Assembly: GCA_009733575.1 (NCBI GenBank)
Contig: ML769534.1
Span: 104,009 to 168,008, forward strand
Direction of reading: 5' to 3'
From: Gymnopus androsaceus JB14
Lineage: Eukaryota > Basidiomycota > Agaricomycetes > Agaricales > Omphalotaceae
Length of the DNA stretch: 64,000 nt
How positions within the stretch are numbered: the first letter of the stretch is position 1; the number at the start of each line of letters is the position of its first letter. The notes under the pieces are model-generated. The model saw only the letters and a program-made list of their open reading frames with translations. It was not told where the DNA came from and did not search any database. The position numbers were made by a program, and so were the translations under genes. This document shows positions 1 to 57,885 of this stretch, piece by piece.

Positions 1-2180
1 AGTGCGATGTAGAGTCCCCAGAGCTCTAGCGACGCTTGCTCAAGGCGAAGGCACTCTGGTGTCGGACCGGGTGTCTCCTCCTCCTCTCTCCTCCTACAAG
101 GTCCCAGCGTACTAGTAGGTACAAGAAAATATCGAGAGTGAGTCGTAGTCGGCGATATACGTGTCCGGATAAGAAGCAATGTCAAACGGAGTGACAGCGA
201 AGGAGTTTGCGGTTGTCGTGGTAAGGGAAGTAAGGCGGGATTAGGAAGGCGCCCAAGGCGCGAAACGATCACCGTATTCCGTCGCGTATCGTGTCCCTTC
301 CACACTGTCTGACGTCTCATGTCGCTTCAAGTACTTATAGAGCTGGCAAGGCGCGGAGAGCCGGTTAGCATGTATGTCTTTTGTTGGTCATGGGCTGGGG
401 CAATCAAAATATATTTCGTAACATTTTCAATGCCAGTGTCATTGGAAATAAGAAGCTAGGTCGCCAGCGCACTGCGCCGAATCGTTTGTGCAGGTATCAT
501 TAAGTATGCATCTCGCTACACTGAGAATGCAACATGATTCATGAAACCAGAGTCCTTGCACTCCGAGAACGAAGATGAGCTCCAGCTCGAAAACGAATGA
601 AGTTATTGTTATCTCTTTATCTTGCCAAGCAGGATTGAATTGACCTTGAACCGAGTTCCTTGCAGCTCGGATGCAGCTCTACAATTGTGAGGAAATGGTT
701 GGTAAGTGCACATACTGTTCGGTGCCACAGCTCCTATACACACCTGTTGTTCTATATAACCTGTCGAGGTACTAGTGAGGCACTAAAACAACTCGGCATT
801 CGCAAATGCTCACCCAGTGAAACAGAGGCAATCGGGTCGAAGGAAAGTTGGGGTGATGTAAAAATGACTATCAAAAGTTAGCGAACGTTTGGAAGGAAGG
901 AAGATCCCAATCGCCACTTTTGACCGCCGGGATTCGAAAATCTGACATCCAATTCCCCTCCATTCGCAACTCTTTTTTTGAGAGCGGCGTTGAGTCACAG
1001 CTCGTGATAATAGAACACAATCATTATAGCGGGAGGAAGACGAAACCAAGAGTAACCTGAGAGCACGTCGTGGTCTAATTTAGCTCACGCGGCCCGTGCC
1101 ACGTGAAGCCAAAGCGACGAATATCAACTTTTCTATCTATGAAAGCATTGAACATATATATGTATCGTGAAACCGTAATAATCGTTTGAGCAATGTATAC
1201 TGTCACTGTGTATGAAAATAAATTATCATAGATTCACGGATTCCACTGAAAGCTGTGTACATTGCTATTAATAACGTTCGTTTGTTCTCACTACTAGTAT
1301 TTGCATCAACCAAATGGAAACAAAGAAAAAAGGAGACGAAGAAACGACTTGGAAATAACGTTTAGTACAGGCCATGACCGCGGCAGGAGCAACCTTTTGG
1401 TAAGCAGTTCAACAATCGAAGCCAAACACGCTATGCCAGGTAGCCATGTTCTAGCACAACAACGTGGACCGTGGTTAGTATAAGTCTTTGCAAAACCTTA
1501 AACTTACACTATGATATCAGCTTAACACCGTCCACCAATCGTATCCCAAGTAAATAGATGAAGAAGTATGGCTACGGACCTCAAGGTGCGGGGAGGTAAG
1601 GAATGCAGATTCCGCCGATTGCATGGTAGAGGAAATCACTGAACCGGGAGTGGGGTACTCAGAGCTAGAAAGTTGAAAGTAAGCAGAAAGAAAGACGAGC
1701 AAGAGGGTGCGAGGCTAAATTTATACTTATCACAATTCAGGGCCGACGATGGGCAACAACGAAGAGGCTAGTGAGCACATAGGCAAGGTTGAGATGGCCA
1801 TACATTTCAACCCTGCCTATATCATCATCAGTGTCTTGCATGCGCCGTTGAATGGGTACTAGTCTGAGGACTCTGGAGGAAGAGGTCATCGGAAGAACCA
1901 AAGGAAGGAAGAAGTGGGGATGCCGTGGACGAGTTATGGGGTTTATATCAAGTTTATATCGTTCTACGATTACTTATTATTAAGCGATCTCGAGATGTTT
2001 ATCGACGACTATGTGGCCGTTAGGGACGCAGCATACATTAGATTATGAGATCTACCGAGCGGAATGGGTGAAAAAAGCATAGCTACGGTAGTACGGATAA
2101 TATCTAGGTGCCCCATTTGCCAGACAAGCACGCTGTGTTGGCAGTTTGGCATGAAGTCTTCCCGGAAGCTCGGTGAATAG
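1..2180. other. No gene recognised
   Basis: Only short reading frames without recognisable domains are present, and no frame shows an extended intron-exon pattern. The sequence is of mixed composition with no clear tandem or inverted repeats visible by eye. It could contain the untranscribed flank of a neighbour outside the window or a heavily decayed element. Confidence 0.4.
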
Positions 2181-4890: not shown

Positions 4891-4893
4891 TTG
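2460..4893 (-). pseudogene. Acidic/basic low-complexity protein gene, damaged copy 1
   Basis: This is the duplicate of the gene at 7047-9640. It keeps an intact acidic first exon (…ADSEGEDEDLLIPPI…), a Pro/Ser-rich segment (GIPPIVTLPNP), a Lys-rich segment and a C-terminal basic/acidic helix (RRKTRKEMEWEKKDPEEKE). Lesions: the ATG seen at the same place in copy 2 reads GTG here; the D/E-rich block before GIPPIV is deleted; the Lys-rich segment is frameshifted to end in TMMMTILS; and the stop is displaced, so the last exon ends LRLGRRNSALDF instead of LGLGGWEE-stop. Function is unknown. The composition (alternating KK and DDDD runs) suggests a nuclear chromatin-associated protein, which is inference from composition only. 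Confidence 0.6.
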
Positions 4894-5009
4894 AGATAGT
4901 ACACTGAAGATGTAGACGTTAGACGCGCTGCCAAGCAACATCTACGCAAAACAGAGCTCACGGAGATCGTGTTTGGTTCCGGTCGAGTCGCTTTTGTAAG
5001 GTACGGCGG

Positions 5010-5839
5010 TGTAACGAGTACCTACAGATTAGATAGGACCCCTGATAATACCGCTGGAGCTCTGATCCCGAATGGTCGAAATTCGCCCTTTTTTATGGCC
5101 CGATTTGGGGAAAATCCGGCCTTTTGCACTATACCTGCTCTGAAAATTTACATTTTCGGCCCTTTTAGGCATCATACCTCTGATAAGTTCGTTTTCCGCC
5201 GTTTAAGCATTTTCAGCCCATTTTGGACTACAATTTCTGCAATTATAAGTTACAGACATTCAAATATCGGAACGCCTGGTCGCCGGCAATAATTCCTCTA
5301 CGTCAACATCTCCCTTACGCTTTCCACGATGGAATGGATCTGCGAGAATTTTCTGAACGGCGCTTTGAACGTCGAGGATCTTCAAAGATCATTATGTGTG
5401 TTGTGGCGTTGGCTTCGTTTCGTTTTTCCAGCAAATGAAAGTACGAGTAGAAAGTACGAGTACTCTTGAGTCTGATCACTCCAAAAATCCAAGAATTTGG
5501 CCCAGAATTCGGCCCTTTTGGATCAAACCTGGTCTCCGATCGGTCTTTTTCGGCCTTTCTTTACACTAGACCTACCATCCAAAAAGCGTCAAAATTCGGC
5601 CTTTGGCATGATACATTCCCTCTAAATTTGGCCAAAATCCGGCCTTTTGGGATCAGAGCTCAGGCGGTATTATCAGGGGTCCTGATTAGATACAGATCCC
5701 TCCATCCTGCCGGCCGATCCGGCACCTATCCTATATATACAGTAGAGTAGAGTACTTAGAGTAGTCGTACCTGAGTTCACTCTGAATCGTAACGCTATCC
5801 CTATCGTTCGAGTGCCCTCTCTGTAACCACAAGGTTACA
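5010..5839 (+). mobile_element. Short LTR of a retroelement, split by a MITE
   Basis: The block starts TGTAACG and ends GGTTACA, i.e. TG…CA with matching inverted termini. It contains a TATA-like CTATATATACAG near 5731 and is followed by a leader and then a gag-like reading frame at 6035. Removing the MITE at 5035-5683 and its extra 8 bp leaves about 173 bp, a small LTR. A second inverted partial copy lies at 6323-6585. The element family is not identifiable because no pol sequence is present. Confidence 0.55.
5035..5683. mobile_element. MITE with 8-bp target duplication (hAT-like)
   Basis: The 649 bp element begins AGGACCCCTGATAATACCGC and ends with its inverse complement. Flanking GATTAGAT is present at 5027-5034 and again at 5684-5691, a perfect 8-bp target site duplication. 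Imperfect inverted similarity extends beyond the terminal 20 bp (GAGCTCTGATCCC on both sides). The interior is non-coding and contains degenerate repeats of a TTCGGCCCTTTT-like motif. An 8-bp TSD is usual for hAT superfamily elements; the family assignment rests on that alone. Confidence 0.85.
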
Positions 5840-6585
5840 TTTTTTTTTTGATATCCACAGCGTTTACCTCTCTCTCTACCTCTCACAAAAACTCCAACTC
5901 CAACTCACTTCCCTTGTCCCTGCTCTGGACCAGCCTCAGCTTGATCAACTGGGCCATTCCGACATCGACAAGGCTCCCCTCACTCTCAAAAAGTTGACGA
6001 AAATTTTACAGAAATTTTTCAAGGACAACACAGCATGTCGAAACCCGACAAATCGCAAGACCGAGATTCGGATGTCACCTCCAAACGGGTACTCCGATCT
6101 CATTTAAAATTCAACCCGGCTCCCGAAGCACAGCAAGGCCCTCAAGAGGAGTCTGGCCCTGGCGGCCAGACCCATACGCAGGATAGTCCCGTTGGGCTGT
6201 CCATAAGTCGGACCCAGGTTGAGCGTTCTACCCATGTCCCTCAACCTGACAGTTCTTCTGATTCAGAGGGCGATCCCGATGATCATGCTGATAGTAATAA
6301 TAATAATAATAATAAATTATCTTTTTCTGTAAAATTTTCATCGACTTTTTGAGAGTGAGGGGAGCCTTGTCGATGTTGGAATGGCCCAGTTGATCAAGCT
6401 GAGGCTGGTCCAGAGCAGGGACAAGGGAAGTGAGTTGGAGTTGGAGTTTTTGTGAGAGGTCGAGAGAGAGAGAGGTAAACACTGTGGATATCAAAAAAAA
6501 ATGTAACCTTGTGGTTACAGAGAGGGCACTCAAACGATAGGGATAGCGTTACGATTCAGAGTGAACTCAGGTACGACTACTCTAC
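5758..6585. repeat. Large palindrome: inverted LTR/leader arms around a gag start
   Basis: The left arm 5758-6014 and the right arm 6323-6585 are near-perfect reverse complements of about 260 bp. They include the LTR end with its TGTAACC…GGTTACA mini-palindrome, a CT-rich leader and the GAAAATTTTACAG sequence just before the gag ATG. The loop, 6015-6322, holds the first part of a gag-like frame and an (AAT)n tract at about 6294-6318. The arrangement is an LTR followed by a turned-around copy of itself and could form a long hairpin. Confidence 0.85.
6035..6352 (+). pseudogene. Gag N-terminus fragment of the LTR element
   Basis: A 105-residue frame begins MSKPDKSQDRDS about 195 bp after the LTR end. 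It is hydrophilic and rich in Ser, Asp, Pro and Gln (RVLRSHLKF; PDSSSDSEGDPDDH), as in the disordered N-termini of fungal Gypsy Gag proteins. It runs into a poly-Asn tract from (AAT)n and stops inside the inverted arm, so the frame is truncated before any capsid domain. Assignment as Gag is from position and composition, not from a recognisable domain. Confidence 0.5.
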
Positions 6586-6714
6586 AGTAGTCTCTCTTAA
6601 TTACTGCAATGAATTCGTAGTTGGCAGTTCGGTTGTCCGAGGATATGAGGTCCGTCCCGAAGTTCAACCGTTCAAGCTTCAAGTTGAGCAGGCTGATGAT
6701 GTCAATGGACCCGA

Positions 6715-9635
6715 TTTGAGTCGAAAGGTTTACTAGTCCAAGTATTGCACTTCATAGCTGACGCAATGGTAGCGCCGTGTTTGATTAATCCGGTAGCCAT
6801 CTGGTGTTTTGCCAAGGCGATCTTGTGTTTTCGTGATGTGTTTCCTTCACAAAGGGTTCGAGCTCGAATCTTACGGTGGTCTTAGAGCTATCTTCAAGAA
6901 TCCTTTTTCGTATCCCTTTTTTTCTTGTTCCATTTTTAGTCATCGATAGAAGTACTACAAATGAACGTTGTTTCGATAGCAATGTACATAACTCATCCAT
7001 ACTAATACTGCAAGTAATCGCTCTCAAAACACGAAAGTCCAAAGCACTATTCCTCCCACCCACCTAACCCCAACTCCCTATCCCTCTTCATCCTCTTCAT
7101 CATTTTCCTCTGCTCCTCCCCCAGCGCCAACCACTCACTCACCCTCCAACACTACTAATAACCTCCTCCTCCCACCTCTCTTCCAGCTCCTCTTTCTCCT
7201 CGGGATCCTTCTTCTCCCACTCCATCTCCTTTCTGGTTTTACGCCGAGGCGGGGGAGGAGGCGGGACAAGCGGCGGAGAGCGCCGATTTGGGTGCAGTGG
7301 AGCGATGACGGGAGAGGAAGGCACGGGAAGATTTGAGGTAGGGGGAGTAGGCTGTTAAGCCACCGGACCCGACTGGAGTTGTGCTTCCGCTAGCACCTTC
7401 ATCAGCGTTAGCGTTAGCACCCGCTCTCCCACGACCACGACCAGCGACCCTTCATGACTGGACTCTTGAACTGTGAATTCGGCATCGAGTTGACTCGTCT
7501 GATGAGTTCGGACATTGGCGTTGATTGATTTCGTGTGGATTTGGGCGCGATGGTGTAGCGGGAGGCGAGGGTAGGGTATTTGAGTGGGGCTGGTGATGCT
7601 GAGGCTTTGGCGGAAGCGCGCGCGCTGGTACTGGCAATGGGAGTTTGAGGGACAGGTGAAGTCAGGCGGAAATAGGTTTTCCTGGATGGATGATACAGAG
7701 ACAGCGATTAATAATCCATCGAAAGAGAAAGTCGGTAATCAAAGCGAGCAAACTCACTTTGAGTCTACTGCTCGAGCCAGAACCAGCGACTTCACCAATG
7801 TCGGCGTCGGGTTCAGCGATCCCAGTCTCTTCATCCCCATCCCATCCTTATCCTTGCTCGCTGTAGCCTTTGACTTGCCTTTAGCTTTCGACTTCGATTT
7901 GGATGTCGACGTCAATGCTACAACTACCTTGGCTTTCGCTTTCGAGCGGGACTTTGTCGTCGTGATCATCGCAGTAGTCGGAGCCAAAGCCATAGTGGCG
8001 TCCATAGCGTCGTCATCCAATGCTTTCTCCTTCCCTTCACCGACCTCAGCTTCGTCTTCCTCCTCGTCCTCAGAAAGTACCACCCTTCCTTTCTTCGCGT
8101 TCTTTCCCTTCTTCGACTTCGACTTGGCCTGCACCTTGGAAGCTGCTGCTGCGACTGTCATAGCCACATCGAAGTCCATCTCCATATCCTCGTTAGCTCC
8201 AGCTCCAGTCTCGGGCTCAGGCTCAGCGTCGACTTCGTCACTTTTCCGCATCTTCTTCCGACTCCGACTCTGAGCGCCTTTCCCGTTTCTGTTTCCGTTT
8301 TCTAGCTGAGGTTCACCGAACTCGCCCAAGTCCTCGCCTTCGCCATTCGTCCTCCGCAGGTCGTTTATTCACTGGTGAGCCTGGCGTACGTTCCGACTGC
8401 GGGTTTGGATGAGTCTCGTCGGTTTGAGGCGGGATTCGAGGCGGGATTCGGATGCGAGTAGAGTGGGATTTTGCGTTAGCATTGGTACTGTTGCTCGTGC
8501 TCGTGCTAGGTTTCGGGAGCACGGCTACAGAAGACAGGATCGCTTCGTCGATATCCATGTTATCGTCAGAATCCATGATGAATTCATGACTCTTGAATTC
8601 AGGTTGCGGAACTCGAAGCACGCAGCAGAAGCAGCATCTTTCTTCTTCTTCGTTTCCTTCTTCGGTTTTACCTTGAACAAACGTGAATACACGAAGAAGC
8701 GAATGATCAGAGGAGATCTTGTCAACTTACTGGCGCTTTATCTTTATCTTTCCCTTTCGCCGGCTTCTTGCCTTTCCCTTTCGTTCCAACTTCTGCCTCT
8801 AGCTCAAAATCGTCATCATCATCGTTCTTCTTCGTCCGTGTTTTCTTCGCCTTTGGTTTCGTATTGTCGTTTACAGGTGTTGGCGGAGCGGGTTCGGGTT
8901 CGGGTTCAAGTTCAGCAGCCGGAGGAAGAGGAAGAGAAGACGAATCTGGTGCGAAGAATGGCGGAGGCGGAGGGCCCATACCAGTAGAAGCTGACGAAGA
9001 GGGATTAGGAAGAGTCACAATGGGCGGAATCCCAAAGTCTCGGAATTCGTCCCAAGGAGTAGACTGCGGTGGATCAGACGGAGGAAGTTGTGAATTCGAA
9101 GATGTACTGGTAGCCATGGGTAATGATGATTCAGGTGGAGCAGGCAAATACAAAGCCTTCTTCGGGTTCGACTTTCTCTGCTTCTTTGGTTTCAAAATCA
9201 ACTCGTCGTCGTCGTCGGTTAATTCGATGATTTCCGATATAGGCTGAGCATGAACGGTCGAGGTCCGTTTCCGCATTTTAGCTCGATCAGCAATGCTTGG
9301 AGTCATGTTATCCGTAAATATGTGCGAATAATCTGCAGCTGCGGCGACTCTAGATTTCGAAATGGGCCGTGCTTTGGGTCGAGTTTTATTTGAGGCTGAG
9401 GTGGTAGCCTGTTGCTGAGGTACAAGGGAAGAAAAGTTGGATATTACACTGTCGTTCGCAGCGGTTGTGTTGATAGTAAACTCGGAAATTGTTGAAGTAG
9501 CTGCCCAGAAAGATGAAAGTCAATAAATAACGCAGAAAAGCAAGAGTTCACCTCACCAGCGACAGCAACAATCGGTGGAATAAGAAGTTCTTCGTTCTTC
9601 TCCTTCACTATCTGCGACGATTTCGTTGGGATCGT
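6715..9635. repeat. Segmental duplication, copy 2
   Basis: This is the partner of 2185-4890, in the same orientation. It carries the better preserved coding sequence. The unmatched parts between copies are small insertions or deletions, for example a block encoding an acidic IIELTDDDDE stretch that is present only here. Confidence 0.85.
6750..6882 (+). tRNA. Decayed tRNA-like sequence in duplication copy 2
   Basis: The region corresponds to the tRNA-like sequence of copy 1. It keeps GCAATGGTAGCGC, resembling the D arm, and a B-box-like GGTTCGAG followed by a CTTACGGTGGTC acceptor-like end. The two are about 100 nt apart with extra sequence between them, so it cannot fold as a normal tRNA. 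Confidence 0.25.
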
Positions 9636-15630: not shown

Positions 15631-16539
15631 GGAAATGCTCTACAAGCTGCAATAATTACAGGAAATCAAGCTATTGTTGAAGTCCTTCTAAAGAATGGTA
15701 CAAATGTCGATGTGAATCCTGGATATTATGGAAAGGGTCTCCACTCAGCAGTATCCGGTGGAAATGAAGGTATTGTCAAACTCCTGCTGAGACATGGAGG
15801 TGATTTAGAAAGTGATTACTATGAGAATATCCTCCAGGTTGCAGCTGGATGTGGGAATGAAACTATTGTCAAGCTTCTTGTAGGCTGCAGGCCTGATATC
15901 AGCTTACAGGTCAGCTGGTATGGAACTGCTCTGCAAGAAGCTGTATCTAAGGGACATGAATCTACTGTCAAGCTTCTTGTGGCTCATGGAGCTGATGCCA
16001 TTTGTGAGGGTGCATACTATCAGAATGCTTTACAAGAGGCAATATTAGAGTGTAATCAAGCTATTATCATGCTTCTTCTACTTCAAGCAGCAGTGTCTAC
16101 TAAAGGGCATGATCTCACTGTAAAAATGCTTCTAGACAACAGAGCTAATCTTGATGTACAAAGCAAAATCTTTAGAGCTGCTCTCCATGATGCAGCATCT
16201 GAAGGGGATAAAGCTATTGTCAGCCTGCTTCTCAATAATGGAGCTGATGTAAATGTTGTGGATTATGGAAACCCATTCCAAGCAGCGGTCTCAAATGGAC
16301 ATGAAGGCATTGTCAAGCTCCTTATAGATCATGGAGGTTTCGTAAATGGCACAACTTTTAGAAACCCACTCCAAGCAGCAGCATTAATAGGTCATGAAGC
16401 CATTGCGAGAATGCTACTTGAAAACGGAGCTGATGTCAATGCAGTATGCTATACGGGAACTTGTCTCCATGCTGCAGCCTTCAACGGGCATGAAGCTATT
16501 GTCAACCTTCTTTTATGTAATGGAGCTGATGTGAACCGT

Positions 16540-17480
16540 GCAGGTTACGGAAATCTACTCCAAGCAGCAGCATCAAGGGGTCACAAGGTTATTGTGAGAA
16601 TGCTACTTGAAAATGGAGCTAATGTCAATGCAGTATGCTTTGTGGGAACCTGTCTCCATGCTGCAGCACTGAATGGGCATGAAGCTATTGTCAAGCTCCT
16701 TCTAGGATATGAAGCTGATGTGAATGGTGCAGGTTATGAAAGTCCACTCCAAGCAGCAGCATCAAAAGGTCATGAGGCTATTGTGTCAATACTACTTGAA
16801 AATGGAGCTAATGTCAATGCAGTACGCTATGCGGGAACTTGTCTCCATGGTGCAGCATTCAATGGGCATGGAGAAATTGTCAATTTCCTTCTAGGACATG
16901 GAGCTGATGTGAATGGTGCAGGTTATGCAAGTCCACTCCAAGCAGCAGCATCAAAGGGTCATGAAGCCATTGTGAAAATGCTACTCAGATATGGAGCTAG
17001 TATCAAAGCAATATGTCATGTTGGAACCTGTCTCCATAGTGCAGCATTGAATGGGCATGAAGCTATTGTCAAGCTCCTTCTAAGATATGGAGCTGATGTG
17101 AATGGTGCAGGTTATGAAAGTCCACTCCGAGTAGCAGTATCAATGGGTCATGAAGCCATTGCAAGAATGCTACTTGAAAATGGAGCTGATGCCAATGCAG
17201 TATGCTATGCAAAAACCTGTCTTTATGTAGCAGCATTCCACGGGCATGAAGCTATTGTCGATCTCCTTCTAGAAAATGGAGCTGATGTGAATGGTGCAGG
17301 TCATGCAAGTCCACTTCAAGCAGCCACTTTGATGGGTCATGAAGCTATTGTGAGAACACTACTTGAAAATGGAGCTGATATCAATGCAGGCAGTGGAAGA
17401 TATGAAAGTCCACTTCAAGCAGCAGCATCAATGGGTCATGAAGCTATTGTGAGAACGCTACTCAAAAAAGAAGTGAAATT
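16540..17480 (+). repeat. 189-bp higher-order repeat of paired ankyrin units
   Basis: The text GGTGCAGGTTATG recurs at exactly 189 bp steps (about 16542, 16731, 16920, 17109, 17298). Each period encodes 63 residues, two alternating ankyrin repeats: one type with SPLQAAASKGHEAI and one with GTCLHAAALNGHEAI. The unit-to-unit similarity is much higher than in the upstream ankyrin repeats, which indicates recent expansion or gene conversion. Confidence 0.85.
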
Positions 17481-24944: not shown

Positions 24945-26650
<1,706 letters not shown>

Positions 26651-28043: not shown

Positions 28044-31000
28044 ATGTCTTTACCAAACATCCCTCCTGTGACTTCCTTGTCTGGTCCACACCAATTGTTT
28101 TCAGGTGCCCATGACTTCCAAATATCTAGAAGTACATTCCAAGTTGCGAGTGGAGACATTTACAACCAAACACGTGTGTAACATTCTTCGTCATGGTATT
28201 CCTTTCGTTGGCTTACTAGCTGACTACCTGTGGCTTCTCCAATTCCTTATCTTTGAAAAGCGGTGTGTTCATCATATTTATGGTTGCATGAACTCACTGA
28301 ACATTACAATCCGCAGATTGTTTACTATTGCAAATGGCGCTTGTCATCTGCTCCCCCTGATTATTATATTATTGGTTGTATAAAACCTGGAAGCCCTGGG
28401 GAGACTTCTCATATTGTACGGAGGTTTACGCGGGAGGAAGACCGAGATCGCTTTGAATCAATGCTGAACAAATTTGGGTAAGTTTATAAAGTTGTAACTT
28501 GTTATGTAACTGATTATTGTGGATTACTTGTGTGTTCAAGATGGTCCCCGTTTACAAGTAAAGCACTTTGGAAGCTCACCGTGAATGGAGACCCATGTTT
28601 AGCTGTATCGTCTGCAGGTGAGTTTGTATTTTGGCCTTCAAATCGAGAATCTAAAACCGGGAAGCTGTCTATACATTACAGGAAGTGATGCCAGAGCACA
28701 ATTTTGAGCAGCGGCTTCGAATGGTGAGATTCAAGGTGATTTGATTTTTGGCTGTTGTTTTTGCTCACAACACAATCAAGTTCCTCAAAATTTCAGTATG
28801 GCTAATGGTTTATGAGAATTGGGCATTTTGATGATACAGCTTTAGTCATTTTTTATGGAAAATCAAGATGTTTATCCAGGAAAATGGAACTGGAGGCACC
28901 TTTGGGATTGTTGGGGTCCATACAAAAGTTTAAAACTGTTTGATGGGAATGGAAATCTGATAATTGACCTGGAACTGCTGGAATCCTATGGTTTGCTTTA
29001 TCAAGAAGGATCACAATTTCTGGTGAGAATAGTGCATCATCAATGAATGAAGGTTGAGTGACAATTATCAGAGACATGGGGACCAAGAATTATATTCAAA
29101 AGTTGAAAGGATGAACGAGAAGATTAAAAATAAAATAGGTGAGTGTAAATTATGGTTGAGCAGTAGTGGAAAATCCATGTTTTATAACAGGGAGAGCTGG
29201 ACTTGCTAAATTGAGAGAGGGTAACTTGAAAGAAAGTAAAGTAAGCTTTGATGTATTGATTGAAATAAGATGCAAGCCCAGTTAACTCTCATCCCCTGTC
29301 CTCCAGTTTGTGGGTGCCTCCATTCCCCTCTCCAGGTTCTCCCCTCTGCTGACTCTTGTCCCTTCTCCTCTCTCCAGTCTGTGAGTGCCTCCCATCCCCT
29401 CTGCAGTTTCTCCCTCCTGCTGACTCTTGTCCCCTCTCCTCTCCACAGCATGTGAGTGCCTCCCATCCCCTCTGCAGTTTCTCCCTCCTGCTGACTCTTG
29501 TCCCCTCTCCTCTCTCCAGCTTGTGAGTGCCTCCCATCCCTTCTGCAGTTCCTACCTCCTGCTGACTCTTCTCTCTCCAGTTTGTGAGTGCCTCCCATCC
29601 CCTCTGCAGTTTCTCCCTCCTGCTGATTCTTGTCCCCTCTCTTATTTCTAGTGGGTGAGTGCCTCCCATCCCCTCTGCAGTTTCTCCCTCCTGCTGACTC
29701 TTGCCTGCTCTCCTCTCTCCAGCGTGTGAGTGCCTCTCATCCCCTCTGCAGTTTCTCCCTCCTGCTGACTCTTGTCCCCTCTCCTCTCTCCAGCTTGTGA
29801 GTGCCTCCCATCCCCTCTGCAGTTTCTCCCTCCTGCTGACTCTTGTCCCCTCTTCTCTCTCCAGCTTGTGAGTGCCTCCCATCCCCTCTGCAGTTTCTCC
29901 CTCCTGCTGACTCTTGTCCCCTCTCCTCTCTCCAGTGGGTGAGTGCCTCCCATCCCCTCTGCAGTTTCTCCCTCCTGCTGACTCTTGTCCCCTCTCCTCT
30001 CTCCAGCTTGTGAGTGCCTCCCATCCCCTCTGCAGTTTTTCCCTCCTGCTGACTCTTGTCCCCTCTCCTCTCTCCAGTGGGTGAGTGCCTCTCATCCCCT
30101 CTGCAGTTTCTCCCTCCTGCTGACTCTTGTCCCTCTCCTCTCTCCAGTCTGTGAGTGCCTCTCATCCTCTCTGCAGTTTCTCCCTCCTGCTGACTCTTGT
30201 CCCCTCTCCTTTCTCCAGCCTGTGAGTGCCTCTCATCCCCTCTGCAGTTTCTCCCTCCTGCTGACTCTTGTCCCCTCTCCTCTCTCCAGCTTGTGAGTGC
30301 CTCCCATCCCCTCTGCAGTTTCTCCCTCCTGCTGACTCTTGTCCCCTCTCCTCTCTCCAGGATGTGAGTGCCTCCCATCCCCTCTGCAGTTTCTCCCTCC
30401 TGCTAACTCTTGTCCCCTCTCCAGTTTGTGAGTGCCTCCCATCCCCTCTGCAGTTTCTCCCTCCTGCTGACTCTTGTCCCCTCTCCTCTCTCCAGTATGT
30501 GAGTGCCTCACATTCCCTCTGCAGTTTCTCCCTCCTGCTGACTCTTGTCCCTTCTCCTCTCTCCAGCATGTGAGTGCCTCCCATCCCCTCTGCAGTTTCT
30601 CCCTCCTGCTGACTCTTGTCCCCTCTCCTCTCCACAGGATGTGAGTGCCTCCCATCCCCTCTGCAGTTTCTCCCTCCTGCTGACTCTTGTCCCCTCTCCT
30701 CTCTCCAGCATGTGAGTGCCTCCCATCCCCTCTGCAGTTTCTCCCTCCTGCTGACTCTTGTCCCCTCTCCTCTCCACAGGATGTGAGTGCCTCCCATCCC
30801 CTCTGCAGTTTCTCCCTCCTGCTGACTCTTGTCCCCTCTCCTCTCTCCAGCTTGTGAGTGCCTCCCATCCCTTCTGCAGTTCCTACCTCCTGCTGACTCT
30901 TCTCTCTCCAGTTTGTGAGTGCCTCCCATCCCCTCTGCAGTTTCTCCCTCCTGCTGATTCTTGTCCCCTCTCTTATTTCTAGTGGGTGAGTGCCTCCCAT

Positions 31001-31622
31001 CCCCTCTGCAGTTTCTCCCTCCTGCTGACTCTTGCCTGCTCTCCTCTCTCCAGCGTGTGAGTGCCTCTCATCCCCTCTGCAGTTTCTCCCTCCTGCTGAC
31101 TCTTGTCCCCTCTTCTCTCTCCAGGATGTGAGTGCCCCCCATCCCCTCTGCAGTTTCTCCCTCCTGCTGACTCTTGTCCCCTCTCCTCTCTCCAGTGGGT
31201 GAGTGCCTCCCATCCCCTCTGCAGTTTCTCCCTCCTGCTGACTCTTGTCCCCTCTCCTCTCTCCAGCTTGTGAGTGCCTCCCATCCCCTCTGCAGTTTCT
31301 CCCTCCTGCTGACTCTTGTCCCCTCTCCTCTCTCCAGTGGGTGAGTGCCTCTCATCCCCTCTGCAGTTTCTCCCTCCTGCTGACTCTTGTCCCCTCTCCT
31401 CTCTCCAGTGGGTGAGTGCCTCTCATCCTCTCTGCAGTTTCTCCCTCCTGCTGACTCTTGTCCTCTCTGCTCTCCTCTTCTCCAGCCTGTGAGTGTCTCC
31501 CATCCCCTCTGCAGCTTCTTTCTCCTGCTGACTCTTGTCTCTGTACTCCCTAACAGCAGTATGATGATGCTGATCAGTTTGAAGAAGTTCCTTGCTCAGA
31601 AACTGAGTCAGCATTCTATTAA
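28044..31622 (+). CDS. Hypothetical multi-exon gene containing a tandem intron-like array
   Basis: The frame from 28044 reads MSLPNIPPVTSLSG…LFSGAHDFQISRSTF, the same leader type (LFxxAxxFxI…F) as the NACHT-ankyrin gene at 12085. Later exons read LWLHELTEHYNPQIVYY … CIKPGSPGETSHIVRRF (28270-28478) and WSPFTSKALWKLTVNGD (28543). Text around 28680-28960 is less certain (one stop). The next three exons join cleanly: …LELLESYGLLYQEGSQFL (ends 29020), RHGDQELYSKVERMNEKIK (29071-29137) and GRAGLAKLREGNLKESK (ends 29240, before GTAAGC). After the array, a terminal exon 31557-31622 reads QYDDADQFEEVPCSETES and ends AFY-stop. It is in phase with the exon ending at 29240. No enzyme domain recognised. 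Exon structure in the middle needs transcript support. Confidence 0.5.
29307..31556 (+). repeat. 71-bp tandem array of intron-like units with variable triplets
   Basis: Thirty-two units, most of 71 bp (a few near 61-63 bp). Each unit has GTGAGTG at its 5' end, a GCTGAC branch-like site, a long pyrimidine tract and a CAG (rarely TAG) end. Exactly three bases then precede the next GTGAGTG. Those triplets vary (CTT 7, TGG 7, TTT 4, GAT 4, CAT 3, TCT 2, CGT 2, CCT 2, TAT 1), while the 68 nt around them hardly change. None is a stop codon. The block 29440-29780 recurs almost identically at 30771-31110, showing unequal exchange. Because 71 is not a multiple of 3 and the minus strand lacks stops, spurious long minus-strand frames arise here. 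Confidence 0.93.
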
Positions 31623-39337: not shown

Positions 39338-40425
39338 TGTGAGACCCGGTGCACGAAACGGATCTCAAACCAAGGTATCCCAAATGTCTCGCACCTAGAT
39401 GTAGGTGGAGACCAAATGCGACCACCCCGGGTAACCATGCCGTAAGGTGGGTCTAGACAGTAGTATGAGCGTTGTACGGAACAGTACAAGCCTCAGAGGT
39501 GCAAGGAACAGTGTACGGGCCACCTGATGACGTAATCAGGAGGAAGCGGGTGGTATTGTGGTCCGATGACCAGAAATGAGTGGAAGTGGATGGAATATGG
39601 ATAAAGGGGTGGTCCAAAAAGGTGTAATAAGTCCGAATATGGATAATGCGGGTGGAATACAGCAAAAGCAGACGGGAATAGCGTGGGAGCGGGTGGAATG
39701 GGGTGAAAGCGGGCGGAAATAGCGTGGGAGCGGATGGAATAGCACAAGAGCGGACGGAAATACCGTGGGAGTGGATAGAATAGGGTGAAAGCGGATGGGA
39801 ATAGCGTGGGAGTGGATGGATTAGCGTGAGAGCGGGTGGAAATAGCGTGGGAGCGGGCGGAATTGAGTGAAAGCGAACGGTCCCAGAGGTTCTAGAGGTA
39901 GCAAAACCCAAATAAGAAGCTCCCGGGGAGCTTTAGTTGTAAAGTTGTAAACAGAGATAGAAGACAGTGAGCTCTGGACGTAGATTTGGTATCTACGGAC
40001 AGAGCCTCGCAGTTAATGCAGATGACAGTGGGCCTTCGAACGGAGCTCGGAAGGCACAGCTGGTTAGAACAGATAGAAATAGAGAGACAGAGACAGAGAC
40101 AGAGGCAAAATGGGATTGATTCGGTAACAATGGTAATAACAGACTAGGGTGCATGGACTCGGGGTGTCTACTTATATACTGTAGGGTGGCTGTGTAAGTC
40201 GTCGGGAGGGCCTGATGGATGGTTATCAAGTGCGGGAGGCACCCGGGAGGCAGGATAAGTAGTAATCACATGTAGAAAGTGCCCGGCAGGCAGGATAAAT
40301 GGTAAATAAGCATGGAAAGCACCCGCAATGTAGGTAATGAGTGCGGGAAGTATCCGCAGACAGTCAGGAAGCGTGGGAAACATCAGCGGGTGGATAGCGG
40401 ATGAGAAATGAGCCAAGTCCTGACA
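39338..40425 (-). mobile_element. Solo LTR (1.1 kb family), with target duplication
   Basis: The 1088 bp block is the reverse complement of the LTRs at 45766 and 48631. It runs TGTGAGACC…GTCCTGACA on the plus strand. A perfect 5-bp duplication TTTAT flanks it (39333-39337, 40426-40430), as expected after LTR-LTR recombination of an inserted element. Internally there are about ten degenerate copies of a roughly 22 bp motif (GTGGGAGCGGA-type) and a TATATA near 40175. Confidence 0.93.
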
Positions 40426-45765: not shown

Positions 45766-46884
45766 TGTCAGGCCTTGGCTCATTTCTCATCCGCTATCCA
45801 CACGCTGATGTTTCCCACGCTTCCTGGCCATCCGCGGATACTTCCCACGCTTCCTGACCGTCCGCGGATACTTCCTGCACTCATTACCTACATTGCGGGC
45901 ACTTTCCATGCTTATTTACCATTTATCCTGCCTGCCGGGCACTTTCTGCATGTGATTACCACTTATCCTGCCTCCCGGGTGCCTCCCACACTTGATAACC
46001 ATCCATCAGGCCCTCCCGACGACTTACACAGCCACCCTACAGTATATAAGTAGACACCCCGAGTCCATGCACCCCAGTCTGTTATTACCATTGTTACCAA
46101 ATCGATCCTGTTTTGCTCTGTCTCTGTCTCTGTCTCTCTATTTCTATCTGTTCTAATCAGCTGTGCCTTCCGAGCTCTGTTCGAAGGCCCACTGTCATCT
46201 GCATTAACTGCGAGGCTCTGTCCGTAGATACCAAATCTACGTCCAGAGCTCACTGTCTTCTATCTCTGTTTACAACTTTACAACCAAAGCTCCTTGGGAG
46301 CTTCCTATTTGGGTTTTGCTACCTCTAGAACCTCTGGGACCATCCGCTTTCACTCAATTCCGTCCACTCCCACGCTATTTCCATCCGCTCTCACGCTATT
46401 CCGTCCGCTCTCACACTATTCCCATCCGCTTTCACCCTATTCCATCCACTCCCACGCTATTTCCGTCCGCTTCTGCACTATTCCGTCCGCTCCCACGCTA
46501 TTTCCGCCCGCTTTCACCCTATTCCACCCGCTCTCACGCTATTTCCGTCCGCATTTGCTGTATTCCATCCGCATTATCCATATTTGGACTTATTACACCT
46601 TTTTGGACCACCCCTTCACCCATATTCCATCCGCTCCCACTCATTTCTGGTCGATCGGACCACAATACCACCCGCTTCCTCCTGATTACGTCAGCGGGTG
46701 GCCCGTACACTGTTCCTTGCACCTCTGAGGCTTGTACTGTTCCGTACAACACTCATACTACTGTCCAGACCCACCTTACGGCATGGTTACCCCGGGTGGT
46801 TGCATTTGGTCTCCACCTACATCTAGGTGCGAGACATTCGGGATACGTTGGTCCGAGATCCAGTTTCGTGCACCGGGTCTCACA
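45766..46884 (+). repeat. 5' LTR
   Basis: 1119 bp, starting TGTCAGGCC and ending TCTCACA. TATATAAG lies at about 46043, a likely retroelement promoter. From about 46330 to 46560 the LTR holds tandem roughly 22 bp units with the core CCGTCCGCTCCCACGCTATT. Confidence 0.92.
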
Positions 46885-48630: not shown

Positions 48631-49747
48631 TGTCAGGCCTTGGCTCATTTCTCATCCGCTATCCACACACTGATGTTTCCCACGCTTCCTGGCCATCCGC
48701 GGATACTTCCCACGCTTCCTGACCGTCCGCAGATACTTCCTGCACTCATTACCTACATTGCGGGCACTTTCCATGCTTATTTACCATTTATCCTGCCTGC
48801 CGGGCACTTTCTGCATGTGATTACCACTTATCCTGCCTCCCGGGTGCCTCCCGCACTTGATAACCATCCATCAGGCCCTCCCGACGACTTACACAGCCAC
48901 CCTACAGTATATAAGTAGACACCCCGAGTCCATGCACCCTAGTCTGTTATTACCATTGTTACCGAATCAATCCTGTTTTGCTCTGTCTCTGTCTCTGTCT
49001 CTCTATTCCTATCTGTTCTAACCAGCTGTGCCTTCCGAGCTCCGTTCGAAGGCCCACTGTCATCTGCATTAACTGCGAGGCTCTGTCCGTAGATACCAAA
49101 TCTACGTCCAGAGCTCACTGTCTTCTATCTCTGTTTACAACTTTACAACCAAAGCTCCCCGGGAGCTTCCTATTTGGGTTTTGCTACCTCTAGAACCTCT
49201 GGGACCGTCCGCTTTCACTCAATTCCGCCCGCTCCCACGCTATTTCCACCTGCTCTCACGCTAATCCAACCGCTCTCACACTATTCCCATCCGCTTTCAC
49301 CCTATTCCATCCACTCCCACGCTATTTCCGTCCGCTTTTGCACTATTCCGTCCGCTCCCACGCTATTTCCGCCCGCTTTCACCCTATTCCACCCGCTCTC
49401 ACGCTATTTCCGTCCGCATTTGCTGTATTCCATCCGCACTATCCATATTTGGACTTATTACACCTTTTTGGACCACCCCTTCACCCATATTCCATCCACT
49501 CCCACTCATTTCTGGTCGTCGGACCACAATACCACCCGCTTCCTCCTGATTACATCAGCGGGTGGCCCGTACACTGTTCCTTGCACCTCTGAGGCTTGTA
49601 CTGTTCCGTACAACACTCATACTACTGTCCAGACCCACCTTACGGCATGGTTACCCCGGGTGGTTGCATTTGGTCTCCACCTACATCTAGGTGCGAGACA
49701 TTCGGGATACATTGGTCCGAGATCCATTTCGTGCACCGGGTCTCACA
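48631..49747 (+). repeat. 3' LTR
   Basis: 1117 bp, same orientation and nearly the same sequence as 45766-46884, preceded directly by the polypurine tract. Its 3' flank is unrelated to the carboxypeptidase S copy on the other side of the element. Confidence 0.92.
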
Positions 49748-54063: not shown

Positions 54064-54446
54064 TTCTTAGATAGTCCAAAGTGTAACAATCCAGTAATTA
54101 ATATGATCAAAATCCACAGGAAATCCAGGGGCCCTGCCTGGATTCCATGCATGTCGCATGGATTCCATGCCCTAGTAGATAGTATTGTATGGATTCCAGG
54201 CATGTTGCATGGAATCCATGCACTAGTAAAAATAGCAGTGTATGGATTCCAGGCATGTCGCATGGAATCCATGCACTAGGAAAAATAGTAGTGTATGGAT
54301 TCCAGGTATGTTGCATGGAATCCATGCACTGGTAAAAATAGTAGTGTATGGCATTCCAGTCTACTGGGAAAAGTAACTAGTTAGATAGTCCAAAGTGTAA
54401 CAATCCAGTAACTAATATGATCAAAATCCACAGGAAATCCAGGGGC
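54064..54446 (+). repeat. Doubled left terminal segment of the foldback
   Basis: The segment starting TAGATAGTCCAAAGTGTAAC occurs twice, at about 54068 and 54385. Between them are a few 53 bp units and then a terminus of the other type (CATTCCAGTCTACTGGG at about 54353), which otherwise marks the right end of the element in opposite orientation. A second element end therefore appears to be nested in the left arm. Confidence 0.7.
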
Positions 54447-54479
54447 CCCGCCTGGAATCCATACACCCCACCTGGATTC

Positions 54480-56705
54480 CATGCATGTTGCATGGATTCC
54501 ATGCACTACTAAAAATAGTAGTGTATGGATTCCAGGCATGTTGCATGGAATCCATGCACTGGTAAAAAATAGTAGTGTATGGATTCCAGGCATGTTGCAT
54601 GGAATCCATGCACTAGTAAAAATAGCAGTGTATGGATTCCAGGCATGTCGCATGGAATCCATGAACTAGGAAAAATAGTAGTGTATGGATTCCAGGCATG
54701 TTGCATGGAAAATCCAGGGGCCCCGCCTGGAATCCATACACCCCACCTGGATTCCATGCACTACTAAAAATAGTAGTGTATGGATTCCAGGCATGTTGCA
54801 TGGAATCCATGCACTGGTAAAAATAGTAGTGTATGGATTCCAGGCATGTTGCATGGAATCCATGCACTAGTAAAAATAGTAGTGTATGGATTCCAGGCAT
54901 GTTGCATGGAATCCATGCACTAGTAAAAATAATAGTGTATGGATTCCAGGCATGTTGCATGGAATCCATGCACTAGTAAAAATAGCAGTGTATGGATTCC
55001 AGGCATGTCGCATGGAATCCATGCACTAGTAAAAATAGCAGTGTATGGATTCCAGGCATGTCGCATGGAATTCATGCACTAGTAAAAATAGTAGTGTATG
55101 GATTCCAGGCATGTTGCATGGAATCCATGCACTAGTAAAAATAGCAGTGTATGGATTCCAGGCATGTCGCATGGAATCCATGCACTAGGAAAAATAGTAG
55201 TGTATGGAATCCAGGCATGTTGCACACTTGTAAAAATAGTAGTGTATGGAAGTAGTGTATGGATTCCAGGCATGTTGCATGGAATCCATGCACTAGTAAA
55301 AATAGCAGTGTATGGATTCCAGGCATGTCGCATGGAATTCATGCACTAGTAAAAATAGTAGTGTATGGATTCCAGGCATGTTGCATGGAATCCATGCACT
55401 AGTAAAAATAGCAGTGTATGGATTCCAGGCATGTCACATGGAATCCATGCACTAGGAAAAATAGTAGTGTATGGAATCCAGGCATGTTGCACACTTGTAA
55501 AAATAGTAGTGTATGGAAGTAGTGTATGGATTCCAGGCATGTTGCATGGAATCCATGCACTAGTAAAAATAGCAGTGTATGGATTCCAGGCATGTTGCAT
55601 GGAATTCATGCACTAGTAAAAATAGTAGTGTATGGATTCCAGGCATGTTGCATGGAATCCATGCACTAGTAAAAATAGCAGTGTATGGATTCCAGGCATG
55701 TCGCATGGAATCCATGCACTAGAAAAAATAGTAGTGTATGGAATCCAGGCATGTTGCACACTTGTAAAAATAGTAGTGTATGGAAGTAGTGTATGGATTC
55801 CAGGCATGTTGCATGGAATCCATGCACTAGTAAAAATAGCAGTGTATGGATTCCAGGCATGTCGCATGGAATTCATGCACTAGTAAAAATAACAGTGTAT
55901 GGATTCCAGGCATGTCGCATGGAATCCATGCACTAGGAAAAATAGTAGTGTATGGAATCCAGGCGTGTTGCACACTAGTAAAAATAGTAGTGTATGGATT
56001 CCAGGCATGTTGCATGGAATCCATGCACTGGTAAAAATAGTAGTGTATGGATTCCAGGCATGTTGCATGGAATCCATGCACTAGTAAAAATAGTAGTGTA
56101 TGGATTCCAGGCATGTTGCATGGAATCCATGCACTAGTAAAAATAATAGTGTATGGATTCCAGGCATGTTGCATGGAATCCATGCACTAGTAAAAATAGC
56201 AGTGTATGGATTCCAGGCATGTCGCATGGAATCCATGCACTAGTAAAAATAGTAGTGTATGGATTCCAGGCATGTTGCATGGAATCCATGCACTAGTAAA
56301 AATAGCAGTGTATGGATTCCAGGCATGTCGCATGGAATCCATGGACTAGGAAAAATAGTAGTGTATGGAATCCAGGCATGTTGCACACTAGTAAAAATAG
56401 TAGTGTATGGAAGTAGTGTATGGATTCCAGGCATGTTGCATGGAATCCATGCACTCGTAAAAATAGCAGCGTATGGATTCCAGGCATGTCGCATGGAATT
56501 CATGCACTAGTAAAAATAGTAGTGTATGGATTCCAGGCATGTTGCATGGAATCCATGCACTAGTAAAAATAGCAGTGTATGGATTCCAGGCATGTCGCAT
56601 GGAATCCATGCACTAGGAAAAATAGTAGTGTATGGATTCCAGGCATGTTGCATGGATTCCATGCACTAGTAAATATAGTAGTGTATGGATTCCATGCATG
56701 TTGCA
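54480..56705 (+). repeat. Left satellite arm, 53-bp repeat
   Basis: About 40 or more copies of a 53 bp unit whose core is TGGATTCCAGGCATGTTGC followed by ATGGAATCCATGCACTAGT and an AAAAATAGTAGTG spacer. TGGATTCCA and TGGAATCCA within each unit are an inverted pair, so every unit can form a hairpin. Frequent variants are GTCGCA for GTTGCA and AGCAGTG for AGTAGTG. A 267-bp higher-order unit is repeated three times in tandem at about 55072-55872. Confidence 0.93.
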
Positions 56706-57885
56706 TTAGTACTAGTTCAACCATTAGATTAGTTACTAGTCCGAGTTATCAGTACTAGTACCACCATTAGGTTAGTTACCAGTTCGAGTTATTAGTACTA
56801 TTATAAGCCTTAGATTTGTTACTAGTACAACTTATTAGTCCTAGTTCAACCATTAGATTAGTTACTAGTCCAAGTTATTAGTACTAGTACAACCATTAGA
56901 TTCGTTACTAGTCCGAGTTATTAGTACTAGTACAACCATTAGATTAGTTACTAAGTAGTCCGAGTTATTAGTACTAGTACAACCATTAGATTAGTTACTA
57001 GTCCGAGTTCTTAGTATTAGTACCACCATCAGATTAGTTACTAGTCCGAGTTATCAGTACTAGTACCACCATTAGGTTAGTTACTAGTATGACTTATTGG
57101 TACCAGTACAACCATTAGCTTCCTTACTGGTATGACCTTATGCCCACCCTCCCGGTGCTTATGGGCGCTTATTTATCCAAAAAATGTTGGGAATCAGGCT
57201 TGATAAATCCTTAAAAAATCATCAAAGATCATCGAAACATTTCGGCATGATTGTACCCCCCCCCGGTGCGTATGGGCACATATGGGTGCTCATTTTACCA
57301 CAGAACATTGGGAATTGAGCATGATAAATTCTGGAAAAATCATGAAAAATAGCGAGAATATTTGCGCATTGTTTTCCCGCCCACTAGCACTTTTGGGTGT
57401 GTATTTTCCTGCCAAATAACGGGAATTGAGCTTGATAAATCTCGGAAAAATCATAAAAAATCATAAAAATATTTAGGGATTGTTTTTCCACCTCTCACTG
57501 ATTATGGCACCTCATGTCCAAATATGGTCATGTAACCCATGTGACACTGTCACACTACATATATGGTACACCTTAACTGATTATGGCACCTCATGCCTGA
57601 ATGTTCTCATGTGACACATGTGACACAGTCACACTACATATACAGTATACCTTAACCGTAACTCTCCTTCTGGAATTCATCCTCATTGCAATCAAAAGTG
57701 TAATTTGTAGTTTATGTGACAGTGTCACATGCAGGCTGATGGGATCAGCAGAGGTAGGTTGCTGGGTGTAGATGAGAAAGTTGTCACTGTAACTATCAAT
57801 CGCTATTTCACAAATTTCAATTTGTGCTGTGTGACAGTGTCACATGACTATTACTACACTTCGCATGCACTACTATATTTACTTG
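56706..57885. repeat. Centre of the foldback: nested tandem repeats, no transposase
   Basis: 56706-57125 holds about nine imperfect units of a TTAGTTACTAGTCCGAGTTA type (about 45 bp). 57128-57490 has three degenerate units of about 120 bp (TTGATAAATC…AAAAATCAT). 57500-57660 has two units of about 88 bp (GATTATGGCACCTCATG). Four near-palindromic TGTGACA(C/G)TGTCACA sites fall between 57535 and 57845. No reading frame with a domain was found. Confidence 0.8.

What the first reader, a model, noticed from the sequence alone, without database searches (positions are those of the whole stretch)
29307..31556. Tandem array of 32 intron-like units separated by single variable codons
Each 71 bp unit reads as a complete fungal intron: donor GTGAGTG, branch-like GCTGAC about 20 nt before a long pyrimidine tract, acceptor CAG. 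The three bases left between one acceptor and the next donor are the only hypervariable positions and never form a stop. The exon before the array (ends 29240) and the exon after it (starts 31557) are both in phase 0. Splicing the block as one intron, or retaining any number of triplets as 3-nt microexons, therefore keeps the frame, and each retained triplet adds one residue. Possible explanations: an intron that expanded as a minisatellite, a local burst of introner-like elements, or stepwise (recursive) splicing with codon-level diversity.
Basis: partly seen in the sequence, partly recalled or inferred. Interest (0 to 1): 0.92.

Follow-up and report, generated by a model that had tools for sequence, protein, structure and literature searches.

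The report
Gene with tandem single-codon exons
In a mushroom, a family of related genes carries tandem arrays of short, similar intron-like sequences separated by just three bases, two of them highly variable; these introns are likely spliced out one by one, so that each triplet would add one residue to a variable peptide in the protein, which would be an unusually extreme use of tiny exons.

Summary
At 29241-31556 there are 33 intron-like segments and 32 three-base linkers, inside one gene of Gymnopus androsaceus JB14 (named through matching deposited proteins). All 14 loci of this gene family that I found carry such an array, in the 13 aligned ones right after the same exon. Two subfamilies have unit sequences with little in common beyond donor, branch-like motif, pyrimidine tract, acceptor and the 3-nt linker. 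Overall, GT/AG is kept far beyond the local change rate (not in two arrays), while linker positions 1-2 are among the most variable columns; no linker is a stop (0 of 303). In the window, 33 of 45 unit pairs with identical introns differ in their linker. Two deposited protein models equal, letter for letter, translations that use a 2-nt exon in this gene (P0002) and the first 3-nt linker of an array as an exon (P0004). Best reading: stepwise splicing with single-codon exons, giving a variable peptide. I had no RNA data, so inclusion of every codon is inferred. Introner burst, antisense gene and dispersed satellite are rejected; removal of the whole array as one intron is less likely but not excluded. 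The biological role is unknown.

The parts
28044..28173 (+). exon 1 (ATG; MSLPNIPPVTSLSGPHQLFSGAHDFQISRSTFQVASGDIYNQT + 1 nt)
   Evidence: open and alignable in paralogues; same start as deposited protein P0002 of a paralogue
28261..28262 (+). 2-nt micro-exon CG (AAAAG|CG|GTGTGT)
   Evidence: AG-NN-GT kept in 12 of 13 aligned paralogues; needed for frame; deposited protein P0002 equals the translation of the L011 paralogue with this exon
28317..28477 (+). exon 3
   Evidence: length 161 in the six closest copies
28541..28617 (+). exon 4
   Evidence: length 77 in the six closest copies and L017
28665..28723 (+). exon 5 (VYTLQEVMP motif)
   Evidence: motif kept in both subfamilies
28846..29022 (+). 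exon 6 (FFMENQDVYPGKWNW...)
   Evidence: 14 matches in the genome
29072..29138 (+). exon 7
29191..29240 (+). exon 8, last exon before the array, ends in phase 0
29241..29306 (+). first intron of the array (GTAAGC...CCTCCAG), sequence unlike the repeat unit
   Evidence: sequence
29307..29309 (+). first triplet, predicted 3-nt exon (TTT)
29310..31488 (+). 31 units of intron + one triplet; triplets 2 to 32: TCT CAT CTT TTT TGG CGT CTT CTT TGG CTT TGG TCT CCT CTT GAT TTT TAT CAT GAT CAT GAT CTT TTT TGG CGT GAT TGG CTT TGG TGG CCT
31489..31556 (+). last intron of the array, diverged 3' end (CCCTAACAG)
31557..31622 (+). last exon (QYDDADQFEEVPCSETESAFY stop), starts in phase 0
29381..30150 (+). block of units whose copy lies at 30712-31411 (offset 1331, one unit lost)

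Best explanation
Window 29241-31556 consists of 33 intron-like segments and 32 three-base linkers; the introns are likely removed one after another, so that the linkers would enter the mRNA as single-codon exons and add a 32-residue variable peptide (FSHLFWRLLWLWSPLDFYHDHDLFWRDWLWWP) before the conserved C-terminus. Each unit (intron plus one triplet) acts as the unit of duplication; the array grows and shrinks by block duplication and loss (shown for one block), and introns stay alike while the triplets diverge. The mechanism of splicing is inferred: short introns (58-91 nt over all arrays) with a strong pyrimidine tract would be recognised by intron definition, probably from the 5' side, each joined codon carrying the next donor with it. 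Shown: the sequence architecture, its presence in 14 loci, conserved GT/AG, hypervariable triplet positions, no stops, an open host gene, and two deposited models using a 2-nt and a 3-nt exon. Inferred: that all 32 triplets are included, that selection on the peptide drives their diversity, and any role (a recognition or binding surface is a guess).
For: (1) 14 of 14 gene-family loci found carry an array; in the 13 aligned it follows exon 8. (2) Units of the L033-L036 subfamily (about 77 bp) were not found by a DNA search with the window unit and have CTCAC instead of CTGAC, but keep CAG-NNN-GTGAGT. (3) In the 12 arrays with at least 9 scored units, 15 GT/AG letters are changed against 96.9 expected from the inner-intron rate; L034 0 of 108 (21.0 expected), L013 2 of 160 (22.6 expected). 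(4) Triplet positions 1 and 2 are the two highest-entropy columns in 8 of 14 arrays; at least one of them is in the top two in 13 of 14. (5) 33 of 45 pairs of window units with identical introns have different triplets; in a recent block duplication, 10 unit pairs show 4 intron events in about 670 nt and 5 letter changes in 30 triplet letters (pairs at the block edges left out). (6) 0 stops in 303 triplets, mean 11.8 after within-array shuffling, minimum 3 in 5000; counting each distinct triplet once per array, 0 of 101 against 3.8, fraction of shuffles with zero 0.010. (7) Composition is codon-like in the 272 triplets: W 19 against 1.7 expected and C 1 against 9.7 from independent positions. 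(8) P0004, a deposited protein of the L034 paralogue, equals the translation of exon 8 + CCT as a 3-nt exon + GAT...; that C-terminus is contiguous in no forward frame of the locus. P0002 equals a translation with a 2-nt exon. (9) Host exons: pairwise dN/dS 0.36-0.73 among six copies. (10) Pyrimidine content before the acceptor is 0.90 on average in 31 array introns against 0.35-0.65 in 7 other introns of the gene.
Against: No transcript was seen. Six linkers in the direct scan break frame: L009 4 nt, L010 2 nt, L012 4 nt, L017 4 nt and 2 nt, L035 2 nt. Linker length is no better kept than expected: 129 of 306 introns have a non-modal length, about 0.006 events per nt, which predicts about 5.5 linker changes; 3 (aligned) to 6 (direct scan) are seen. 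GT/AG is not better kept than background in L035 (3 changed, 3.0 expected) and L036 (6, 5.3 expected), and not significantly so in L012, L014 and the two short L011 arrays. The deposited models are truncated and may be ab initio: P0004 reads on into the third array intron and stops, P0002 stops before the array, and P0001 uses another splice pattern. Identical introns with different triplets could also come from conversion confined to introns or from local hypermutation. The stop test is weakened by shared ancestry of units. Triplet position 3 is almost never C, which a purely coding reading does not predict (CpG decay is possible).
Confidence: 0.72

Rival explanations
1. The block is one long intron that expanded as a minisatellite; it is removed in one step from 29241 to 31556 and the internal sites are unused copies.
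For: Outer donor and acceptor are in phase 0, so whole removal keeps the frame. Tandem block duplication is typical of minisatellites. Linker length is not kept beyond the indel rate.
Against: Unused internal sites should decay like the rest of the unit; in L034 none of 108 GT/AG letters changed while 19% of inner letters did. It does not explain hypervariable positions 1-2, missing stops, or P0004 using the first triplet as an exon.
Confidence: 0.14
2. The triplets are included in variable subsets: splice-site choice among similar donors and acceptors gives a library of isoforms per gene.
For: All units carry similar signals and any subset keeps the frame, except where one of the six frame-breaking linkers is included.
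Against: Short introns favour pairing of nearest sites (general knowledge); no isoform data. Not exclusive with the best explanation.
Confidence: 0.25
3. The array works as RNA only: many successive splicing steps delay or tune expression and the triplet sequence does not matter.
For: Splice signals are kept; 0-nt junctions (AG|GT) occur at the first array boundary of L033, L035 and L036 and at two more places in L036.
Against: A neutral triplet should not change far faster than its intron, avoid stops, or favour W over C.
Confidence: 0.08
4. A local burst of introner-like elements inserted into a coding region.
For: Near-identical introns.
Against: Insertion every 3 nt is implausible; 185 of 190 genome hits of the two-unit pattern lie in this family, and units share a block duplication.
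Confidence: 0.02
5. The array codes on the reverse strand (stop-free stretches up to 372 aa in the window).
For: All three reverse frames are long in the window (221-372 aa) and in L009 (569-834 aa).
Against: The longest reverse stretches fall to 38-95 aa per frame in the arrays of L016, L017 and L033-L036 (of L017 only 2400 bases were used there); the strand is purine-rich, so stops are rare anyway.
Confidence: 0.01

Closest known systems
Micro-exon genes (MEG) of Schistosoma mansoni
   Same: Protein built from very short exons, described as 3-81 bp, with variation by splicing (PMC10526429; abstract start, passages).
   Different: Introns there are long (up to 5 kbp); here introns are 58-91 nt, tandem and similar to one another, and every array exon would be one codon.
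Single-nucleotide exon of Arabidopsis APC11, and reported 3-nt exons
   Same: Shows that exons of 1-3 nt can be spliced (PMC4674806; abstract and introduction).
   Different: One isolated constitutive exon, no array, no variability.
Recursive splicing and cryptic microexons
   Same: A donor placed a few nt after a fresh exon junction can be used in a second step; a 6-nt microexon was made this way in a reporter (PMC6224609; passages).
   Different: Human cells, single steps; here tens of steps in a fungus are inferred.
Highly internally conserved (HiC) WD/ANK/TPR repeats of fungal NLR-like proteins
   Same: Homogenised repeats with a few hypervariable positions, length polymorphism, concerted evolution (PMC4986451; passages).
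   Different: There the conserved part is coding; here the homogenised part is an intron and only one codon per unit would be translated. No NLR domain was found.
Stwintrons (spliceosomal twin introns) of fungi
   Same: Complex fungal introns removed in consecutive reactions (PMC8469720, PMC9024468; search listing).
   Different: Stwintrons are nested, one inside a splice signal of another; here introns lie side by side with a triplet between.
Xlr2 microexon of Trichoderma virens
   Same: A functional fungal microexon; its authors state none had been described before in filamentous fungi (PMC11121469; abstract start, passages).
   Different: One 20-nt exon.

Membership tests
Schistosome-type micro-exon genes | many exons of at most a few tens of nt, multiples of 3 | tested here: met
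   by sequence only, not by RNA: 293 of 304 array junctions have 3 nt, 5 have 0 nt, 6 break frame (19 further rows of that scan, with 4 to 8 nt, use donor-like sites inside units or at array ends and were dropped)
Schistosome-type micro-exon genes | long introns between micro-exons | tested here: not met
   scored array introns are 58-91 nt
Schistosome-type micro-exon genes | secreted protein with signal peptide | not tested
   no signal-peptide tool used
Recursive (ratchet) splicing | zero-length junction AG|GT | tested here: not met
   3 nt at all 32 junctions of the window array; 0 nt at 5 junctions in L033, L035, L036
Recursive (ratchet) splicing | stepwise use of a regenerated donor | not testable with these tools
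   needs RNA intermediates
Introner-like elements | dispersed copies in many unrelated genes | tested here: not met
   185 of 190 pattern hits in one gene family, control 4
Stwintrons | internal intron interrupts a splice signal of an external intron | tested here: not met
   units carry their own donor, branch-like motif and acceptor side by side
Fungal NLR with HiC repeats | NACHT/NB-ARC domain and coding superstructure repeats | tested here: not met
   Pfam scan of a 255-aa product (earlier exon model, array peptide left out) gave no family above its cut-off
Ordinary satellite or minisatellite | unit occurs without relation to a gene position | tested here: not met
   14 of 14 exon-6 loci carry an array; only 5 of 190 pattern hits lie elsewhere

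The most novel reading that the evidence does not exclude
A codon-by-codon diversifier: a gene family in which dozens of successive codons are each their own exon inside a homogenised intron minisatellite, so that recombination between introns inserts, deletes and reorders single residues without breaking the frame, and the translated codons evolve as a hypervariable recognition peptide.
Probability: 0.5. Interest if true: 0.97.

Novelty: new variant of a known kind. Interest (0 to 1): 0.9.

Why it matters
If the triplets are translated, the spliceosome handles up to about 50 consecutive exons of 3 nt in one fungal transcript (L017 has 53 scored units), which tests the lower limit of exon size and the order of intron removal directly. 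It would also be a way to diversify a protein one residue at a time, with introns serving as homology for recombination, comparable in effect to the hypervariable repeats of fungal nonself-recognition genes but built differently. Exons this small are easily missed in genome annotation (stated for plants in PMC8831610, listing), so similar genes may be hidden elsewhere.

Tried and rejected
Antisense coding: rejected, frames not kept in diverged arrays. Introner burst and dispersed satellite: rejected. Conservation of linker length as proof of frame selection: rejected, it is what the indel rate predicts. First exon models used wrong splice sites for exons 1 and 5; replaced after comparing paralogues and deposited proteins. 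The single TAG counted is the final acceptor of L012 misread as a triplet; that row was dropped. L017 was first cut short; searches use the full array. Column counts drop units covering under 85% of the consensus and the two degenerate L010 arrays, which were not aligned. In one search, unit pairs at the edges of the duplicated block were left out of the count of 10, and the unit at 31057, which looks like a hybrid of two units, was paired with 29797. Structure predictions of two deposited relatives were of low confidence (mean pLDDT 43.9 and 46.8) and were not used. Phage collection search: no match. Homologues outside the species: one deposited protein of Collybiopsis luxurians (39% identity over 77% of the query) and two proteins from short contigs without organism name; their DNA could not be fetched, so whether they carry arrays is unknown. 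Seven paper searches listed no array of single-codon exons, but four of the listings were capped (20 of 48, 12 of 42, 15 of 161 and 8 of 16 papers shown) and the library is open-access only.
Full report
What is there. The stretch 29241-31556 reads, on the + strand, as an intron (66 nt, unlike the repeat unit), TTT, then 31 units of intron plus one triplet, and a last intron. Thirty-three intron-like segments and 32 triplets result. The typical intron is 68 nt: GTGAGTG donor, CTGAC about 25 nt before the end, a pyrimidine tract, CAG. That CTGAC fits a fungal branch site is recalled knowledge, as is the statement that such a length is ordinary for introns of these fungi. A second AG, 24-26 nt after the donor, is present in the consensus of each of the 14 aligned arrays; its role is unexplained.

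The host gene. The window lies in an 83.3-Mb genome of 934 contigs. A protein search identified it as Gymnopus androsaceus JB14, because deposited proteins P0001 and P0002 lie on contigs of exactly the lengths of C765 and C267. By comparing paralogues I built the gene: exons at 28044-28173, 28261-28262, 28317-28477, 28541-28617, 28665-28723, 28846-29022, 29072-29138, 29191-29240, the array, and 31557-31622. Exon 8 ends and the last exon begins in phase 0. With all 32 triplets included the frame stays open to the stop (with an earlier exon model; the corrected exons up to the array are open). Eight of the 14 loci give an open frame up to the array (window, L009, L011, L012, L013, L014, L017, L034); L015 is broken; L016, L033, L035 and L036 could not be read intact; L010 was not tested. 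Among the six closest copies pairwise dN/dS is 0.36-0.73, which points to purifying selection on the exons.

A family of arrays. The peptide of exon 6 finds 14 loci. All 14 have an array downstream, degenerate in L010; in the 13 that I aligned it follows exon 8. Ten loci were found by a DNA search with the window unit; four (L033-L036) were not, and have a unit of about 77 bp with CTCAC in place of CTGAC, yet the same CAG-NNN-GTGAGT order. The two-unit pattern CAG-NNN-GTGAGT-45..75-CAG-NNN-GTGAGT has 190 hits in the genome against 4 for the reversed pattern. The loci that I hold contain 185 of them (126 of 129 forward, 59 of 61 reverse). The architecture is therefore a property of this gene family, not of a dispersed satellite or introner.

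Selection on splice sites. I aligned each array to its own cyclic consensus, so that intact sites were not a condition. Over the 12 arrays with at least 9 scored units, 15 letters of GT/AG are changed where 96.9 would be expected from the change rate of inner intron letters. The strongest cases are L034 (0 of 108, 21.0 expected) and L013 (2 of 160, 22.6 expected). L035 and L036 show no excess conservation, and L012 and L014 no significant one. Since units of L013 and L034 differ from their consensus at 14% and 19% of inner positions, homogenisation alone does not explain this; in those arrays the internal sites appear to be needed.

The triplets. Positions 1 and 2 of the triplet are the two most variable columns of the unit in 8 of 14 arrays, and one of them is in the top two in 13 of 14. 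In the window, 45 pairs of units have identical introns; 33 of the pairs differ in the triplet. A block of units is duplicated with an offset of 1331 nt; in 10 unit pairs there are 4 intron events in about 670 nt and 5 letter changes in 30 triplet letters. No triplet of 303 is a stop, where shuffling positions within arrays gives 11.8 on average and never fewer than 3 in 5000 shuffles; with each distinct triplet counted once per array it is 0 of 101 against 3.8, P about 0.01. In 20 control windows of three columns inside the unit, none shows a deficit of stops larger than 1.0. TGG is frequent and TGT nearly absent, which is a codon-like dependence. The predicted peptides are rich in D, L, F and W (65, 49, 40 and 20 of 303); R (20) comes mostly from L017.

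Evidence against reading too much. Linker length is not a proof: introns change length at about 0.006 events per nt, which predicts about 5.5 changed linkers in 306, and 3 to 6 are seen. In the direct scan of all arrays, 293 of 304 junctions have 3 nt, 5 have none and 6 would break the frame if included, two of these (4 and 2 nt) in the same L017 array; 19 further rows of that scan, with 4 to 8 nt, use donor-like sites inside units or at array ends and were dropped. Position 3 is almost never C, perhaps because C before GTG makes a CpG; this is a guess.

Deposited gene models. P0002 (BT96DRAFT_945923, the L011 gene) is letter for letter the translation using a 2-nt exon CG between AAAAG and GTGTGT; it ends before the array. 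The AG-NN-GT is kept in 12 of 13 aligned paralogues, the exception (L033) not aligning there. P0004 (BT96DRAFT_119996, the L034 gene) is letter for letter exon 8, then CCT as a 3-nt exon of the array, then GAT followed by the unspliced third intron to a stop; this ending exists in no contiguous forward frame. So the annotators' software or data already spliced the first two array introns as proposed. Whether transcripts underlie these models is not known to me; the comparative paper that includes this species says RNA-seq was used to improve annotation of fungal genomes in it (PMC8480192, passages), but I could not establish that JB14 was one of those. The contig length given for P0004 (177,463) differs from that of C136 (167,532), which I cannot explain.

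Mechanism. The best-supported account is that the spliceosome removes the short introns by intron definition, most simply from the 5' end, each step joining one codon whose downstream donor is then used. That very short exons can be spliced is known: a 1-nt exon in Arabidopsis (PMC4674806, abstract and introduction seen) and a 6-nt microexon made by two-step splicing in a reporter (PMC6224609, passages seen). The pyrimidine content before the acceptors, 0.90 against 0.35-0.65 in the seven other introns of the gene, might help such a crowded arrangement. I put 0.72 on inclusion of the triplets by ordered splicing, 0.14 on removal in one piece.

Role. Homogenised repeats with a few hypervariable positions are a mark of repeats in fungal NLR-like genes (PMC4986451, passages seen). 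By analogy the array may diversify a recognition peptide, but no NLR or other domain was found and structure prediction was uninformative. A relative in Collybiopsis luxurians shows that the gene is not confined to this species; whether it has an array could not be checked.

Novelty. Seven paper searches of an open-access library, four with capped listings, showed microexon genes, stwintrons, introners and repeat effectors, but no array of single-codon exons. I file it as a new variant of micro-exon genes in how it would work, not as a member of any named family.

Noticed in passing
window 54139-56706 and 57890-59988: Long tandem arrays of a 53-bp unit (TGGATTCCAGGCATG...); by eye the two arrays are in opposite orientation.
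   Followed up: no
window 39648-39880, 46340-46572, 49205-49437: Three arrays of a related 41-bp unit; 40-bp repeats of similar look also appear in L035 and L036.
   Followed up: no
window 16294-17389: Tandem 96/189-bp repeat whose forward reading resembles ankyrin repeats (recognised from memory).
   Followed up: no
window 25362-26632, minus strand, and 42.7-44.8 kb: Open frames resembling a cytochrome P450 (FEAGRHRCIGEQ, recalled motif) beside the gene; the flanking DNA is shared with other loci of the family and is similar again at 42.7-44.8 kb.
   Followed up: partly
L011 about 3907-5600 and L010 about 4265-5930: About 1.7 kb of other DNA separates two parts of the array in two related copies on C267.
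   Followed up: no
L033, L035, L036, first array boundary: The first boundary of these arrays is AG directly followed by GTCAG, a zero-length junction like a recursive splice site; L036 has two more.
   Followed up: partly
all aligned arrays, 24-26 nt after the donor: A second AG in the consensus of every array, about 42 nt before the acceptor in the window unit, of unknown role.
   Followed up: partly
L034 array (4790-6850): In 12 places the inner AG is followed by 8 nt and a donor-like GTGAAT, GTGAGT, GTGGAT or GTGGGT, so each such unit could hold a second possible micro-exon.
   Followed up: no
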